Source: Candidatus Latescibacter sp.
GTDB taxonomy: Bacteria; Latescibacterota; Latescibacteria; Latescibacterales; Latescibacteraceae
Direction of reading: 5' to 3'
Length of the DNA stretch: 32,170 bases
Assembly: GCA_030692375.1 (NCBI GenBank)
Contig: JAUYCD010000140.1
Span: forward strand, 1-32,170
This document shows positions 185-5,442 of the stretch, in pieces. Under the pieces are notes generated by a model. It had not been told where the DNA came from, did not search any database, and saw only the letters and a list, made by a program, of their open reading frames with translations. Both the position numbers and the translations under genes were made by a program. Numbering within the stretch: the first letter of the stretch is position 1; every line of letters starts with the position of its first letter.

Positions 185-904
185 CTATTTAATCGCAGAA
201 TAGAGATCACGTGCGAATTCTTTTGTAACACCTTTGGCAGTATTTCTTGTGAAATTGTTTACGATGTCCCATTTCCCGCTGATAAAACCATTCCAAACGA
301 CTCCCATTGTAGCTGTGCGTAAGACAAATACCTGTGCACTCATCGTTGCAAAATTTTGTTCAGCTCCGCCGGGGACAAGCGTCATACCTTTACCAGGGAA
401 ATTTTGCTTACCCAACATAGGCATCGCGGAAGCGGTAGCCCCCCTCGTTACTGTCATACCGAAAATCACAATAAGGTAGTCAACCCGGGCAGAAGCAAGT
501 TTTGCTGAAAGTGACTCACGACTCGCAGCCGTCAATGTCGCTATGCCATAAGCATCTTGAGAGAGAGTCAGATCAGTACGAATGCTGTCCAATGAAGAAA
601 AATTTAGCCTCCTGTACTTACCGTTTTGCCAGTCGTACATTTCTTCCTTGCCTGTAAGACAATCAACCAAGAATGACCGAATAAATGCCTCCCCGGACGC
701 GGGATTACCATCGAACGCGGAGATGAAGTCTTGTACCATAGATTTGATATTAATAGAATCCCAGAGTAAGAAAGCGCACCGATTTTTTAGCACTGAATAA
801 TCAGAGTACGAGGGATCACGAAAAATGATGGGGCGTTTAGCTGCACAACCTGACACAATACATAAGATAAGAATCGGTATCCACTTCCACATTTGACACC
901 TCAT
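185..904 (-). CDS. Putative lipoprotein of unknown function
   Basis: This 239-residue protein has a type II signal peptide: a short N-terminus, the hydrophobic stretch WIPILILCIV, and a lipobox ending V-S-G-C at Cys20. It should be lipidated and anchored to a membrane. The mature part matches no family I can name. It contains no obvious metal-binding or catalytic motif, and has a Gly/Met/Pro-rich segment around residues 160-185. The Met at 904 is preferred because AAGGA lies 9 nt upstream; Met5 is the alternative. It lies 54 nt downstream of the HsdS/AlbA_2 fusion gene in the same direction. It is the last gene of the accessory block, so it may be cargo of that block rather than a housekeeping lipoprotein. 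The lipoprotein call is firm; the function is unknown. Confidence 0.8.
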   Translation of the reverse strand: MRCQMWKWIPILILCIVSGCAAKRPIIFRDPSYSDYSVLKNRCAFLLWDSINIKSMVQDFISAFDGNPASGEAFIRSFLVDCLTGKEEMYDWQNGKYRRLNFSSLDSIRTDLTLSQDAYGIATLTAASRESLSAKLASARVDYLIVIFGMTVTRGATASAMPMLGKQNFPGKGMTLVPGGAEQNFATMSAQVFVLRTATMGVVWNGFISGKWDIVNNFTRNTAKGVTKEFARDLYSAIK

Positions 905-958: not shown

Positions 959-2143
959 TCATTTCGGGAAGTGTTCCTGTATATAATGTAATGCATCGCG
1001 CGGAGGTAATTCAGTTGATGAAGGCCCAGAGCGCACGTAAAAGGCTTCAGGCGTGTTCTTGTCCGGTTTGAGCCAGACGTCCTCTTTGCTCTGCTTACAA
1101 ACGACCCAACAGATTCTCTTGTCATCAATAGTCACTAAATCATAGTCAATATACTGAAAAACACTGGGGATTATTTTGTCGGTGATTAGATTCCGTATGT
1201 GGAGGAGAAACTTGTCTTCATTTGCAAAATGATCTTGCTCGATCCCAAGGATAGTATGGTCGTCAGCGACACCTATCAAAAGCTCTCCGCCCTGTGTGTT
1301 ACAAAAAGCCACAATTGTCTTGAGTGTCGCAAGTTCTATATTGTTATCGTTCCGATTGGCCTTCAGATTCCAACGTAGTGAAGACTTAAACTCAAATTTT
1401 GATGTTTCGCCGTGAACAATTCGACTCTTTAAATTATTGGTCGAGATTTGAGACTTGATTTTACGAATTCGGTCTTCGTAATAGGTTGTGACTTGGGTCA
1501 ACTGGCTTTTCAAACGTTCGTTTTCTCCCTCTTTTCCGCGCGAGGCATTAAGTTGCACCCGTAGTTCGGCAATTTGTGCGTCTTTGCTTTGTAATTCATC
1601 ACGGAGAACAATTAGATCATCTGTCGTGGAGGACCCGATATGATCATCACCGAGTCGTTGAAGCTCGGAGAGTGGCAACAATGGAATTTGAATATTCGAT
1701 AAGGCACTAAGTGATAACCTTGGGATTAATGCCCCGCTTGTGGCTTTTTCCGCGTCTTGCAGAAAATGTTCCTGGCCTTTCAGAGTTCGGAGGTAAGATA
1801 CGATGTAGTCGTTATTTTCAGGCGTTCTGATGATAGCACAACTGTTGTTCACTACAGCCATAGGATCTGTATCACGATATATGTAAAGCTTTCGCCTGTT
1901 GAACAGTGTTGAGACAATGATGTCGCCGGGTTGAGCTATGGCTCGACGAAAACTGTCCTTTTGTGTGTCATCGACGTATGAATCCTTGTTAGTCTTCTCT
2001 AAACGACTGTCATTGATATTGCGCCCACCAATCAGTAAATATTTGCCCTGCTGTTTTCGTTCTTCTGGCAGGGGAGAATAGCCGGGAAATATAACTGCAA
2101 GTTCATTAATTGTTGCGATTCGTGTCTTTGGTGTCCCATTCAT
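959..2143 (-). CDS. HsdS-type target-recognition domain fused to AlbA_2/Schlafen-like domain
   Basis: The 394-residue protein has three parts. Residues about 1-165 resemble one half of a type I restriction specificity subunit: GDIIVS at 73-78, NNSCAIIRTP at 99-108, and SGALIPRLSLSALSN followed by IPLLPLSEL at 136-161, the usual end of an HsdS recognition domain. Residues about 172-235 are a charged heptad-like coiled coil, like the HsdS spacer helix. Residues about 248-392 look like an AlbA_2 (Schlafen-type, divergent AAA_4) domain: FEFKSSLRWN at 250-259, GGELLIGVADD at 285-295, and FYVRSGPSSTEL near the end. No hsdM or hsdR is adjacent. From family knowledge the first part should bind a DNA sequence and the last may bind or cut nucleic acid; the joint role is inference. 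AAGGA lies 8 nt before the ATG. The gene begins 20 nt after the R' box of an attC-like site and is probably the cargo of its own cassette. Confidence 0.8.
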   Translation of the reverse strand: MNGTPKTRIATINELAVIFPGYSPLPEERKQQGKYLLIGGRNINDSRLEKTNKDSYVDDTQKDSFRRAIAQPGDIIVSTLFNRRKLYIYRDTDPMAVVNNSCAIIRTPENNDYIVSYLRTLKGQEHFLQDAEKATSGALIPRLSLSALSNIQIPLLPLSELQRLGDDHIGSSTTDDLIVLRDELQSKDAQIAELRVQLNASRGKEGENERLKSQLTQVTTYYEDRIRKIKSQISTNNLKSRIVHGETSKFEFKSSLRWNLKANRNDNNIELATLKTIVAFCNTQGGELLIGVADDHTILGIEQDHFANEDKFLLHIRNLITDKIIPSVFQYIDYDLVTIDDKRICWVVCKQSKEDVWLKPDKNTPEAFYVRSGPSSTELPPRDALHYIQEHFPK

Positions 2144-2162: not shown

Positions 2163-2243
2163 ACCCAACGCCCCGGTTGAGCGGCCGGTTTTCCCGTAGC
2201 GAAGCGGCGGGGAAACCGGTCCGCCTCGAACCTGTTGTTAGAT
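2163..2243 (-). other. Integron attC-like recombination site at the 3' end of the SIR2 gene
   Basis: Read on the minus strand, this 81-nt site begins with R'' ATCTAAC (RYYYAAC consensus) and ends with R' GTTGGGT (GTTRRRY consensus). After a 5-nt spacer comes L'' GTTCGAGGCGG, which pairs with L' CCGCTCAAC except for two unpaired extra bases on the L'' side. Such extrahelical bases are a hallmark of attC sites and set their orientation. The inner part folds as CCGGTTTCCCCG against CGGGAAAACCGG with one mismatch, capped by a CCGCTTCG-containing tip. The SIR2 stop codon TAA lies inside the R'' box, the normal place for a cassette attC, and the next gene starts 20 nt beyond R'. Structure, box consensus, orientation and position all agree. 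I could not scan for an integrase, and none is in the window. Confidence 0.85.
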
Positions 2244-3419
2244 GGCGATTTCCAGCACACGGTGAAGTGCCTTTGTTTTCAACGCCCATTCTAATGTGTG
2301 GCGGCCGATATCTCGATAGCTGGCTCCGAATAGTGCGGAGTAGTTCTCATGGACTTGCGAGTTGGGATCGACAACAAAAACGTTGGGCCTATTTGTCCGC
2401 GTTCCGGTGGCGAGTGCAGCATGGATCAGCGCACGCATAAAACCATCGGTCGGCGGCATGCTGTAACCGATAAACAGAATCGTATTTGCCGTGCTGAGCT
2501 CATTGAATGCATATTTCCAAACATTTGCCAACCAGTGTTTTCTCGCTACCTTTGCGTAGGTTGGAGGAACAATAGCAGGCGTCAGTGATTGACCATAGTC
2601 GTTACGAATTTTCCAAATCGCGTCAACAGCAAATATAGCTGGTTTATTCAGAAAATTGTAGGACAGGCCGATAGGTTTATCGTCTCCAAGATCGATGGAA
2701 ACAAATAATTTATGGTCGCCACTTTTAGACACGTCTTCGAAATAATTGACACTCCCGTGGAGCTTGCATAACACGAATTGTACGTCGGGGTCATCCTGAT
2801 TTACCCGCAAATAGGGCGTTGATCCGTGACCGGCATTGATGATGTTAACACCGTCGGAAAGTCCCTTGAACGGGTATGCACATAGTGCCCCGTTCTTCCA
2901 GGACATGTACTCGAAGATCAGATCGTAATTCGTCGAAATAACGGTTGTCCGTTTCCAAATACACGACTCGCTAAGAAGGCCGAAAAAGTCTGTGTAGGTC
3001 TGTTCCCGTGTTTTCCGGTCAGGATTCAAAAGTGGGCATTGCTGGTAGATTTTCCAAAGCCACAGCTGGATCTTTTCGATCAATTGATCCAGCGCGTAAT
3101 CCGTGTCTTGTAGGCGGATTGTCGAGAGTCCAGCTTCGTTCATTGCTTCGGCGATACAGAAAACCGTTTCGAGATTCTCCGCATCTTCCGACGTTACTGT
3201 CGGGGAACGGCGACATATTTTCTGGAAAGCATAGAAGACGTCGGCCGCTTCGACGAGCACCTGCGCAGCGTGCTTTTCGTTTTTCGATGCATGCTTCGAG
3301 AGGGTGCGGTAATCCTCTCGTGATTGAGGACCGAAAGCTGACATGACTGGGAGGCCAGCGTCAAAAGCAAAGCCAGCACCGAGAAAAATTACTACATCAC
3401 GTTTAGGTATCATGGTCAT
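2238..3419 (-). CDS. SIR2-like domain protein (candidate NAD-hydrolysing defence effector)
   Basis: The 393-residue protein has the hallmarks of a SIR2-like (SIR2_2-type) fold. These are the NAD-binding GAGFAFDAGLP at 14-24, STNYD at 162-166, KLHGS at 219-223 with the presumed catalytic His221, GYSMPPTD at 318-325, and a late VVDPN at 349-353. It lacks the four zinc cysteines of true protein-deacetylase sirtuins. In bacteria, stand-alone or fused SIR2 domains of this sort often deplete NAD+ in anti-phage systems; applying that here is inference. No second effector or sensor domain is evident. The gene ends inside the R'' box of an attC-like site, so it appears to be cassette cargo. Start choice lies between Met1 and Met3 (3413), neither with a strong ribosome site. 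A TATAAT-like box lies about 110 nt upstream at 3528-3533, without a good -35. Confidence 0.85.
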   Translation of the reverse strand: MTMIPKRDVVIFLGAGFAFDAGLPVMSAFGPQSREDYRTLSKHASKNEKHAAQVLVEAADVFYAFQKICRRSPTVTSEDAENLETVFCIAEAMNEAGLSTIRLQDTDYALDQLIEKIQLWLWKIYQQCPLLNPDRKTREQTYTDFFGLLSESCIWKRTTVISTNYDLIFEYMSWKNGALCAYPFKGLSDGVNIINAGHGSTPYLRVNQDDPDVQFVLCKLHGSVNYFEDVSKSGDHKLFVSIDLGDDKPIGLSYNFLNKPAIFAVDAIWKIRNDYGQSLTPAIVPPTYAKVARKHWLANVWKYAFNELSTANTILFIGYSMPPTDGFMRALIHAALATGTRTNRPNVFVVDPNSQVHENYSALFGASYRDIGRHTLEWALKTKALHRVLEIAI

Positions 3420-3443
3420 TGTTCTCGGAAGGGAAGTTTACCC

Positions 3444-3611
3444 ATCTAACAAGTAATTCTGTAGCCGTCTTTATAACACCCAATTTAAAAATTATTTCTA
3501 TTGAATCGCAAAAATAAATAATAAACTATTATACAAAAAAGCTAAATGTATAGCACCCTCATATCCTCACATAAGAGGCCATGCGAGCCGGGAATTATCG
3601 ACTTGTTCGTT
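3444..3611 (-). other. Possible long or decayed attC-like site upstream of the SIR2 gene
   Basis: On the minus strand a perfect R'-type core GTTAGAT lies at 3450-3444, 24 nt before the SIR2 start codon. It is preceded by GAATTACTT. That arm pairs with AACAAGT...AATTC at 3607-3592, except for a 4-nt insertion. The far R'' box (AACGAAC) fits the consensus poorly, and the 168-nt total is longer than most attC sites. The stretch between the arms is A/T-rich and non-coding, and I see no gene in 3420-3692. It could be a decayed site, a lone core site, or chance. Confidence 0.25.
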
Positions 3612-3624
3612 TTCATATTTGCAC

Positions 3625-3684
3625 ATTAAACGTTAAGAATCGGCGGCGCAGTCTCACCGTGTCCGCTGGATTTGCTTGTGGGGC
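3625..3684 (-). other. Degenerate attC-like site after the HNH endonuclease gene
   Basis: Read on the minus strand, this 60-nt stretch starts 8 nt after the HNH stop codon. It has R'' GCCCCAC (one departure from RYYYAAC), spacer AAGCA, L'' AATCCAGCGG, a 16-nt tip, L' CCGCCGATT, spacer CTTAAC, and R' GTTTAAT (one departure from GTTRRRY). L'' and L' pair with one extra base on the L'' side, as in true attC sites. Position, length and polarity fit a cassette end. The outer boxes pair poorly with each other, so this may be a decayed site. Confidence 0.45.
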
Positions 3685-3692
3685 CATTTCTT

Positions 3693-4412
3693 TCATAGAT
3701 TCCGCTCTATAATCTTCTTCACGTAGGCAGGCATCTCTTGCTGAAGTTCTTCCGTCTTCTTTTTCAACCGATCATAGACTGCAACTTCAGCATCTGTCCA
3801 GATGATGTCAAGCCGGCGCTCTTGGCGCATGGCAATGTGAGTGTAATCCTCAGGATAAGCCCAGTAACATGACCGACATATATTGGCATCTTTCTGTTCA
3901 AGCCAATTTGCGCAGTGCTCGCAAGACCACGATTTGGCGCGGTTTGCTGAGTTGCAGAGCAACATAAAGTCTTCTGTATCCTGCTTTCCTGCGATATCCC
4001 CCGCAACCTCAAATGGGATACGATGGTCAATCTGTAACTCTCGTTCACCGAATGGTTCAAGGTAAATGGCGCACCGCGGACCATACTTTTCGATCAGAAA
4101 TCGTTTCAGATCCTTCGTGAACGCCGTGCGGCCAATGAATTTTCCAAATCGGGATTTATTAGGATCTCCAAAACGGTATGCGGCAATCTTGCGTCCGTCC
4201 GAGCCTTCAACTCTGAACATCTCAATTGGGATACCGTTTTCTTTGACGTCACGCACGGCTCTCGGGGGATGATTGTAGCCATATTTGTCTTTCAACTCTT
4301 GCGTGGTTATGAAACCATGCTTGAGAATGTGGTCTATTACTGTCCGAGGACGCTTGGCTTTGACTTTTTTGCATAGCTTTATGAATTCTTTTGGAAGCTT
4401 TGGTTTCGTCAT
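3693..4412 (-). CDS. HNH endonuclease, probable restriction partner of the Dam-type methyltransferase
   Basis: The 239-residue protein begins with a helix-turn-helix-like region (residues about 22-80, VIDHILKHGFITTQELKDKY). An HNH nuclease core follows: LQIDHRIPFEV at 126-136 carries the DH pair, and LLCNSANRAKS at 151-161 supplies the Asn. Two cysteine pairs, CEHC at 164-167 and CRSC at 179-182, probably bind structural zinc. Its start codon overlaps the stop of the upstream methyltransferase gene as ATGA, so the two are translationally coupled. An HNH nuclease coupled to a DNA adenine methyltransferase is best read as a type II restriction-modification pair; recognition of GATC would be a guess from the methyltransferase family. 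An attC-like site follows the stop codon by 8 nt, so the pair may be one cassette. Confidence 0.85.
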   Translation of the reverse strand: MTKPKLPKEFIKLCKKVKAKRPRTVIDHILKHGFITTQELKDKYGYNHPPRAVRDVKENGIPIEMFRVEGSDGRKIAAYRFGDPNKSRFGKFIGRTAFTKDLKRFLIEKYGPRCAIYLEPFGERELQIDHRIPFEVAGDIAGKQDTEDFMLLCNSANRAKSWSCEHCANWLEQKDANICRSCYWAYPEDYTHIAMRQERRLDIIWTDAEVAVYDRLKKKTEELQQEMPAYVKKIIERNL

Positions 4413-5323
4413 GATCTCGTCTCAAAAAGGCACATTTGTTCGCTTCGCGGTAAGCGGTAGACAGTTTTCAATTTAATGAGTTCATCGGCTAATGCTGGGG
4501 AAATGTAAAGCGACTCAATAGTAGCGTCGTCCCTGCCCAATAGAGTTGCCTGCGTTGATCGGCCAGCTTGAAGCTCCGTGAGTGTAAGGTTTAAATGTTC
4601 GGGGAGGCGAATGCCATGAACTTTATCTCCGGTGCGTCCATCGTAACTAACAAGGTATCTGATATGCCTGGTGTTGAGGTGTTCAAGAACTTCGACAAAC
4701 TCACAAAACTGTACGCTGGTAAGGTAGCGTGTATCTTTATTCCCACAAACCCCCTGATATGGCGGATCCATATAAATAAGATCGCTCTCGGTCGCTTGCG
4801 TTAGAACATCCCTGTAGTTCTTGGATGAAAATGCCGTCTTCCCTTTTAGAAGAGATGATGCTCCAAGAATATGTTCTCGCATGGTGACGGGCATTGTTCC
4901 CTTTCGGCGGTTATCGGGACTCTGGTTGAATTCTCCATTAGCATTATATCGGACTGAGGCTTTGACACACCGTGCAAGTAAGTAGAGAAAGTAATCAGGT
5001 CTGCCTGTTAAGTTGAACTTGTCCCGAACCTTTTTGTAATACACCTTTGGATCGTCGAGTTGTTCATGCCAAAGGTCTTCATATTCCTTGGCCAGCTTGT
5101 CCGGTGTGGTGACAATGGCGCGCCAAAGATCGATCAATGGTTTATTCAAATCGTTTATCTGAAAAGCCTTTGCGCTCTTGTACGTGGCTGCGGCCAGCGA
5201 TATCGCTGCCGATCCGGCAAATGGCTCATACAGAGTAGACACACTCGCCGGGAAGCACCGCAAAATATCGTCCGCCAAGTTTCGTTTGCTCCCCTGATAA
5301 GGGATTGGATGAGGAATATTCAT
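4409..5323 (-). CDS. Dam-family DNA adenine N6-methyltransferase (restriction-modification)
   Basis: This is a D12-class adenine methyltransferase. Counted from the upstream Met at 5329, PYQGSKRNLA at 10-19 and YEPFAGSAAISL at 34-45 form the S-adenosylmethionine site, and DPPY at 188-191 is the catalytic motif IV. The total of about 305 residues is normal for Dam/M.DpnII relatives. It methylates adenine in DNA and, with the overlapping HNH nuclease, would protect host sites. The Met at 5323 is preferred because AAAGG lies 8 nt before it but only 2 nt before the Met at 5329; the extra two residues are the only difference. A promoter-like TTGACA/TATTTT pair lies about 120 nt upstream. The sequence is A/T-richer than the kdsD gene that precedes it, consistent with acquired DNA. 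Confidence 0.9.
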   Translation of the reverse strand: MNIPHPIPYQGSKRNLADDILRCFPASVSTLYEPFAGSAAISLAAATYKSAKAFQINDLNKPLIDLWRAIVTTPDKLAKEYEDLWHEQLDDPKVYYKKVRDKFNLTGRPDYFLYLLARCVKASVRYNANGEFNQSPDNRRKGTMPVTMREHILGASSLLKGKTAFSSKNYRDVLTQATESDLIYMDPPYQGVCGNKDTRYLTSVQFCEFVEVLEHLNTRHIRYLVSYDGRTGDKVHGIRLPEHLNLTLTELQAGRSTQATLLGRDDATIESLYISPALADELIKLKTVYRLPRSEQMCLFETRS

Positions 5324-5442
5324 GCCCATAGCCTTTAAATTCTCTTCATTGAGTTTTAATAAGTATTATTTTTTTTCTCTATGACACCCATGACTGTATA
5401 ATACCGTGTCTGCTGTAGTTGCAAAGTCAATATATGTGTATC

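What the first reader, a model, noticed from the sequence alone, without database searches (positions are those of the whole stretch)
959..2143. HsdS target-recognition domain joined to AlbA_2 domain by a coiled coil
The protein keeps one restriction-specificity half and its helix spacer but replaces the second half by an AlbA_2/Schlafen-like domain, with no HsdM or HsdR nearby. It could be a DNA-sequence-guided single-gene defence or regulatory protein.
Basis: partly seen in the sequence, partly recalled or inferred. Interest (0 to 1): 0.65.

Follow-up and report, generated by a model that had tools for sequence, protein, structure and literature searches.

The report
Restriction-type DNA reader fused to Schlafen nuclease
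A bacterial gene joins half of a restriction enzyme's DNA-recognition subunit to a domain of the Schlafen kind, which in animals cuts transfer RNA, so it may be a one-protein alarm that reads a DNA sequence and shuts down translation; that activity is inferred, not shown.

Summary
The 394-aa ORF (959-2143, minus strand) has one HsdS-type target-recognition domain (TRD, residues 8-166; PADLOC Specificity_I E 4.7e-11; its model matches PacII S at E 5e-11), two helices (171-244) and a Schlafen-type AlbA_2 domain (246-379; Pfam E 2e-22). The catalytic glutamates and aspartate of SLFN13 are kept (E246/E251/D294) and invariant in every relative compared.
The AlbA_2 part belongs to a subfamily that works as a plug-in C-terminal module. 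I found it on HsdR, BrxL, GmrSD, DNA methyltransferases, response regulators, cyclic-nucleotide-binding, Cache and membrane sensor domains. TRD-helices-AlbA_2 recurs in at least three other bacteria behind an HsdM-like methyltransferase domain, twice inside type I restriction operons. So this is a stripped TRD-AlbA_2 member, not a second HsdS half exchanged for AlbA_2.
The gene starts 20 bp after a genuine integron attC site (covariance model E 9e-6), which ends a SIR2 defence-gene cassette. A Dam-HNH restriction pair lies upstream.
Best reading: a homodimeric DNA reader that gates a Schlafen-type RNase (abortive defence). Rivals: an accessory subunit for HsdM, a DNA nuclease, or a DNA-binding regulator. 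It is a new variant of a known kind; no activity was tested.

The parts
959..2143 (-). TRD - helical spacer - AlbA_2 gene, 394 aa
   Evidence: single ORF; Pfam and PADLOC
1646..2122 (-). single HsdS-type target-recognition domain, residues 8-166
   Evidence: PADLOC Specificity_I E 4.7e-11; Foldseek to PacII S, Esub1 and other S subunits
1412..1633 (-). helical spacer, residues 171-244 (helices 171-200 and 205-244)
   Evidence: AlphaFold2 models
962..1438 (-). C-terminal AlbA_2 / Schlafen-type module, residues 236-394
   Evidence: Pfam SLFN_AlbA_2 E 2e-22; fold matches SAMD9 tRNase domain and SLFN13
1406..1408 (-). E246, equivalent of rat SLFN13 E205
   Evidence: invariant in alignments A1, A2 and A5; SLFN13 active site in PMC5862951
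1391..1393 (-). E251, equivalent of rat SLFN13 E210
   Evidence: as above; profile alignment to SLFN11/13/14
1262..1264 (-). D294, equivalent of rat SLFN13 D248
   Evidence: as above
2163..2243 (-). integron attC site (R'' ATCTAAC ... R' GTTGGGT) that ends the SIR2 cassette; the TRD-AlbA_2 ATG follows 20 bp on
   Evidence: covariance model built from class 1 integron attCs: 30.9 bits, E 9.4e-6, only match in the window; 1 motif-plus-fold hit in 40 shuffles of the window
3444..3450 (-). GTTAGAT: 5' boundary (R') of the SIR2 cassette, exact complement of its attC R'' ATCTAAC
   Evidence: sequence
2238..3419 (-). SIR2_2-domain gene, 393 aa, the cassette gene directly upstream
   Evidence: Pfam SIR2_2 E 9e-10; PADLOC SIR2 E 9e-12
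3625..3684 (-). weak, degenerate attC-like site just downstream of the HNH gene
   Evidence: 14.7 bits, E 0.028 for 6 kb without filters; R'' and R' cores imperfect
3693..4412 (-). HNH type II restriction endonuclease gene
   Evidence: PADLOC REase_II E 1.3e-58
4409..5329 (-). Dam-family (D12) adenine methyltransferase gene, partner of the HNH gene
   Evidence: Pfam E 1.2e-35, PADLOC MTase_II E 5e-87

Best explanation
The protein is a DNA-triggered effector. The single TRD recognises a half-site. The helical spacer makes it a dimer, so that two TRDs read a two-part site, as a half-size HsdS does. Binding to that site, on invading DNA or on DNA lacking the proper methylation, switches on the C-terminal Schlafen-type domain. 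That domain then cleaves RNA, most likely tRNA, through E246/E251/D294 and arrests translation as an abortive defence. Shown here: the domains, the conserved triad, the recurrence of the architecture and the defence-rich, integron-linked setting. Inferred: dimerisation, DNA binding, RNase activity, activation on binding, and defence.
For: The TRD is real by profile and by fold. AlbA_2 has the fold of the SAMD9 tRNase domain and of SLFN13, and the SLFN13 triad is invariant in 56 of 56 relatives and present in all 79 scan hits checked (the pattern matched 77; the other two keep the three residues and differ only in neighbouring letters). The same module is the C-terminal output of sensors (response regulator, cyclic-nucleotide-binding, Cache, membrane proteins) and of defence proteins (HsdR, BrxL, GmrSD, methyltransferases), as expected of an effector that different inputs switch. 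In relatives the TRD-AlbA_2 unit is joined to an HsdM-like domain whose NPP(F/Y) motif is altered in all three cases (NPPL, FPPI, CSPL), so DNA reading is kept while methylation looks lost. Two of these three lie in type I restriction operons. The gene follows a SIR2 defence cassette and a restriction-modification pair. Published Schlafen-linked bacterial systems are reported to cleave tRNA in abortive infection (PMC12839542).
Against: No activity was tested. SAMD9 AlbA_2 also binds DNA (PMC11221667), so the domain could act as a binder only. No protecting methyltransferase of the HsdM kind is encoded beside the gene, so how self DNA is spared is unexplained. The own-genome HsdS TRDs are not similar to this TRD. 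The helices could form an intramolecular hairpin rather than a dimer.
Confidence: 0.42

Rival explanations
1. An accessory S-like subunit for a type I methyltransferase in trans: the half-S part docks on HsdM (for example HsdM of contig C28) and carries the Schlafen domain to the complex as a guard that fires when restriction is inhibited.
For: TRD-AlbA_2 relatives sit in type I operons next to HsdM, HsdS and HsdR; AlbA_2 is also fused to HsdR; the own genome encodes HsdM and HsdS.
Against: No hsdM beside the gene; the cassette-like setting points to a gene that works alone; one relative (L194) is an orphan HsdM-like-TRD-AlbA_2 gene without hsdS or hsdR nearby.
Confidence: 0.25
2. A sequence-specific DNA nuclease, a minimal restriction enzyme: the TRD finds the site and AlbA_2 cuts DNA.
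For: Fusions to methyltransferases in a type IIG-like order; Schlafen-family domains bind DNA (PMC11221667).
Against: The closest folds are tRNA or RNA nucleases; the module is also fused to Cache, cyclic-nucleotide and membrane sensors, where a DNA cutter is less expected.
Confidence: 0.12
3. A DNA-binding regulator or transcription factor: the TRD gives the site and AlbA_2 is a second nucleic-acid-binding domain without catalysis.
For: AlbA_2 has been annotated as DNA-binding (PMC6299218); some partners are transcription-linked domains (Sigma70_r4, HATPase_c_2).
Against: The acidic triad is invariant across divergent partners, which binding alone would not require.
Confidence: 0.15
4. A decaying remnant of an HsdM-TRD-AlbA_2 gene that lost its first domain, without present function.
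For: Relatives carry the HsdM-like domain; a lone copy in one genome.
Against: Intact ORF with its own start 20 bp after the attC and all catalytic residues kept.
Confidence: 0.06

Closest known systems
Half-size (single-TRD) type I specificity subunits, e.g. Esub1 (PDB 8vsq/8vsr) and the ~200-aa S genes next to hsdM in L179, L180, L183
   Same: one TRD followed by helices; TRD fold; TRD sequence relatives
   Different: here an AlbA_2 domain follows and no hsdM is adjacent
HsdM-like - TRD - AlbA_2 proteins (L194 818 aa; L195 541 aa; Pseudoalteromonas nigrifaciens plasmid protein WP_089369358.1, 783 aa)
   Same: TRD-helices-AlbA_2 order; alignment to L195 runs through TRD end, spacer and AlbA_2 (30% identity over 285 columns, E 4e-32)
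   Different: they keep an HsdM-like domain; the window protein has none
Schlafen / SAMD9 tRNase domain (SLFN13, SLFN11, SAMD9)
   Same: AlbA_2 fold and E/E/D active site
   Different: single lobe; bacterial; joined to a DNA-recognition domain. RNase activity not shown
Prokaryotic Schlafen (AlbA_2) effectors of defence loci (BREX-linked Schlafen RNases, PMC12839542; pAgo-linked AlbA_2, PMC6299218)
   Same: AlbA_2 used as a defence effector or nucleic-acid module
   Different: those described are fused to a histidine-kinase-like domain plus wHTH, or to pAgo; no TRD fusion was found in the papers searched

Membership tests
Type I restriction-modification specificity subunit (HsdS) | TRD fold | tested here: met
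Type I restriction-modification specificity subunit (HsdS) | two TRDs separated by conserved helices | tested here: not met
   one TRD only; the C-terminus is AlbA_2
Type I restriction-modification specificity subunit (HsdS) | hsdM (and hsdR) in the same operon | tested here: not met
   none among the ORFs of the 32-kb contig; HsdM on another contig
Schlafen/AlbA_2 RNase | AlbA_2 fold | tested here: met
   Pfam E 2e-22; Foldseek to SAMD9 tRNase domain and SLFN13
Schlafen/AlbA_2 RNase | catalytic Glu, Glu, Asp | tested here: met
   E246, E251, D294 aligned with SLFN11/13 and invariant in relatives
Schlafen/AlbA_2 RNase | tRNA/rRNA cleavage | not testable with these tools
   needs a biochemical assay
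Vertebrate Schlafen core | two-lobe (duplicated) SLFN core | tested here: not met
   one AlbA_2 stretch only
Integron gene cassette (TRD-AlbA_2 gene) | 5' end at an attC R' core | tested here: met
   ATG 20 bp after the attC that ends at 2163
Integron gene cassette (TRD-AlbA_2 gene) | own attC downstream of the gene | tested here: not met
   no significant match near 960-840
Integron gene cassette (SIR2 gene) | downstream attC whose R'' matches the 5' R' | tested here: met
   attC 2243-2163; ATCTAAC against GTTAGAT at 3450-3444
Complete integron | integron integrase gene | tested here: not met
   no match over the TIGR02249 cut-off in a genome estimated 97% complete

The most novel reading that the evidence does not exclude
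A single-protein innate-immunity sensor in which a restriction-enzyme DNA-recognition domain directly gates a Schlafen-type tRNase: sequence-specific recognition of foreign DNA answered by translation arrest, without DNA cleavage, carried in an integron cassette setting, and one case of a general plug-in Schlafen output module shared by restriction, BREX and signal-transduction proteins.
Probability: 0.33. Interest if true: 0.78.

Novelty: new variant of a known kind. Interest (0 to 1): 0.55.

Why it matters
If right, it links DNA-sequence recognition by restriction-type TRDs to translation arrest by a Schlafen-type RNase in one small protein, which can be tested on the bench with one gene. 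The wider finding, that one AlbA_2 subfamily is appended to HsdR, BrxL, GmrSD, methyltransferases, TRDs and several kinds of signalling sensor, suggests a common bacterial output module related to the animal antiviral Schlafen/SAMD9 nucleases and gives many natural fusions with which to learn what switches it.

Tried and rejected
Rejected: the idea that AlbA_2 replaced a second HsdS half (the module is appended to unrelated proteins). Rejected: a housekeeping architecture (single copy in this genome and no full-length relative in the genomes, plasmids or phages searched). Led nowhere: viral contigs and phages give almost nothing; blastn of the attC against plasmids was uninformative, so a covariance model was built from class 1 integron attCs instead; promoter and terminator scans were at chance level; no other attC in the 26 further loci scanned, 25 of this genome and one of a same-family genome; a combined TRD plus AlbA_2 alignment misaligned the TRDs, so the two were modelled separately. 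The TRD in the full-length model has low confidence because only AlbA_2 rows were deep, so TRD claims rest on the separate model. The own HsdS TRDs do not resemble this TRD, so the idea of a shared target with the resident type I system has no support. [quoted passage not shown]

Full report
Observation. The ORF at 959-2143 (minus strand, 394 aa) is intact and single-copy in its genome. Its N-terminal third is an HsdS-type TRD. Pfam Methylase_S is only sub-threshold (E 0.0025), but 36 PADLOC families match at E <= 0.001, nearly all specificity subunits, best E 4.7e-11. An AlphaFold2 model of residues 1-235 (mean pLDDT 83.7) matches solved S subunits first: PacII_M1M2S E 5.4e-11, half-size Esub1 E 2.3e-10, then other S subunits. 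The C-terminal part is AlbA_2 (Pfam E 2e-22), modelled at pLDDT about 97 and matching the SAMD9 tRNase domain (9o0d), SAMD9 bound to DNA (7ksp), SLFN5, SLFN13 and SLFN11. Between them lie helices 171-200 and 205-244.

Catalytic residues. SLFN13 needs E205, E210 and D248 (PMC5862951). A profile of the module aligns E246, E251 and D294 with them in SLFN11, SLFN13 and SLFN14. These three, with F252, K253, K275, N282 and G285/G286, are invariant in the 56-row alignment A2 and the 40-row alignment A5. All 79 scan hits checked keep the triad; two missed the search pattern only because of neighbouring letters.

The module. A scan of species genomes with the module found 570 confirmed relatives, a lower bound, of which 80 loci were kept. 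Pfam on 56 full ORFs gives these N-terminal partners: HsdR domains (7-9 members), cyclic-nucleotide-binding (7), response-regulator receiver (6), BrxL (3), Cache (2), GmrSD (1), and single cases of HATPase_c_2, Sigma70_r4, HARE-HTH and acetyltransferase. Clustering of the N-terminal parts of the kept loci gives groups of 30 (an approximately 250-aa region without a Pfam match, mostly Bacteroidota), 19 (HsdR), 10 (cyclic nucleotide), 8 (Cache), 6 (receiver) and 3 (BrxL). Further partners, read from sequence: multi-helix membrane segments (L003, L135, L138, L139, L023, L026), an ion-channel-like segment (L145) and Eco57I-like methyltransferases (L142, L196-L198). BrxL-AlbA_2 lies next to pglZ, and an HsdR-AlbA_2 gene lies next to an hsdS gene. 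So the module is a plug-in C-terminal output shared by defence and signalling proteins.

The same order elsewhere. Three proteins carry TRD-helices-AlbA_2 behind an HsdM-like domain: L194 (818 aa, orphan), L195 (541 aa, after HsdR, HsdM, HsdS and an Mrr-like gene) and a Pseudoalteromonas nigrifaciens plasmid protein (783 aa, before hsdM, hsdS, a second AlbA_2-type gene and hsdR). BLASTP of the window protein to L195 runs from residue 112 to 392, through TRD end, spacer and AlbA_2 (30% identity, E 4e-32). The NPP(F/Y) motif of the HsdM-like domain is altered in all three (NPPL, FPPI, CSPL), while the Eco57I-like fusions keep NPPW; that the former are inactive is inferred. No other TRD-AlbA_2 protein without the HsdM-like domain was found in the genomes sampled, in plasmids or in phages. 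The sampling is partial, so rarity is not proven. Among the TRD's sequence relatives are half-size S proteins of about 200 aa next to hsdM (L179, L180, L183).

Setting. On the same strand upstream are a SIR2_2 gene (2238-3419), an HNH restriction endonuclease gene (3693-4412) and a Dam-family methyltransferase gene (4409-5329). Between the SIR2 gene and the TRD-AlbA_2 gene is an integron attC. A covariance model built only from attCs of class 1 integrons of plasmids finds 2243-2163 (minus) with 30.9 bits, E 9.4e-6, the only match in the window. Known weaker attCs in the control records score 15-34 bits. Its R'' (ATCTAAC, holding the SIR2 stop codon) is the exact complement of GTTAGAT at 3450-3444, the expected 5' end of the SIR2 cassette. 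A motif-plus-fold search gave one hit in 40 shuffles of the window. The TRD-AlbA_2 ATG lies 20 bp beyond the attC, as in cassettes, but no intact attC follows the gene, so that this gene is itself a cassette is only suggested. A weak attC-like site (3684-3625, E 0.028) follows the HNH gene. No integron integrase passes the TIGR02249 cut-off in the genome.

Mechanism. Shown: domains, triad, recurrence, setting. Inferred: the TRD reads DNA, the helices dimerise it, and binding switches on an RNase that arrests translation. The inference rests on the fold and triad shared with Schlafen and SAMD9 RNases, on the module being an output of many unrelated inputs, and on the published statement that Schlafen-linked bacterial systems can cleave tRNA in abortive infection (PMC12839542). 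The main gap is how self DNA is spared. Possible answers are absence of the site, methylation by a resident methyltransferase, or a partner subunit; none was tested.

Novelty. Bacterial Schlafen-type effectors in defence loci, BREX-linked and pAgo-linked, are published. A TRD joined to AlbA_2 was not found in the papers searched, but that library holds only open-licence papers. I rate it a new variant of a known kind.

Noticed in passing
window 2163-3450 (minus): A SIR2_2 gene forms a textbook integron cassette (attC plus matching 5' boundary) in a genome without a recognisable integron integrase; the contig ends about 2 kb further on, so a longer array may be missing.
   Followed up: yes
window 3625-3684 (minus): Degenerate attC-like site directly after the HNH gene, suggesting that the Dam-HNH restriction pair may also once have been a cassette.
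   Followed up: partly
L054, L056, L059, L064, L070, L100, L105 and about 23 more loci: A large family, mostly of Bacteroidota, with an N-terminal region of about 250 aa (no Pfam match) fused to the same AlbA_2 module; possibly an undescribed sensor domain.
   Followed up: partly
L216:2332-6916 (minus): BREX locus whose BrxL carries the AlbA_2 module at its C-terminus, next to pglZ; a BrxL-Schlafen fusion.
   Followed up: partly
L196:6671-15238, L197:3-6402, L198:6113-14561: Eco57I-like methyltransferase-AlbA_2 fusion (about 1,350 aa) next to an approximately 1,130-aa protein with a shared start and end (partial in L197); it looks like a two-gene defence system.
   Followed up: no
L145:1006-1992: Ion-channel-like membrane segment fused to the AlbA_2 module.
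   Followed up: no
L130:4138-6456 (IMG/VR contig): Viral-contig protein of 773 aa ending in the AlbA_2 module; the only hit in viral contigs.
   Followed up: no
G000 contig C28 (L199, L205): Resident type I cluster with HsdM (514 aa), HsdS (two TRD matches) and an HsdR-like ORF; its TRDs do not resemble the window's TRD.
   Followed up: partly
window 185-904 (minus): Small lipoprotein-like gene downstream of the TRD-AlbA_2 gene without any family match; could be another cassette gene.
   Followed up: no
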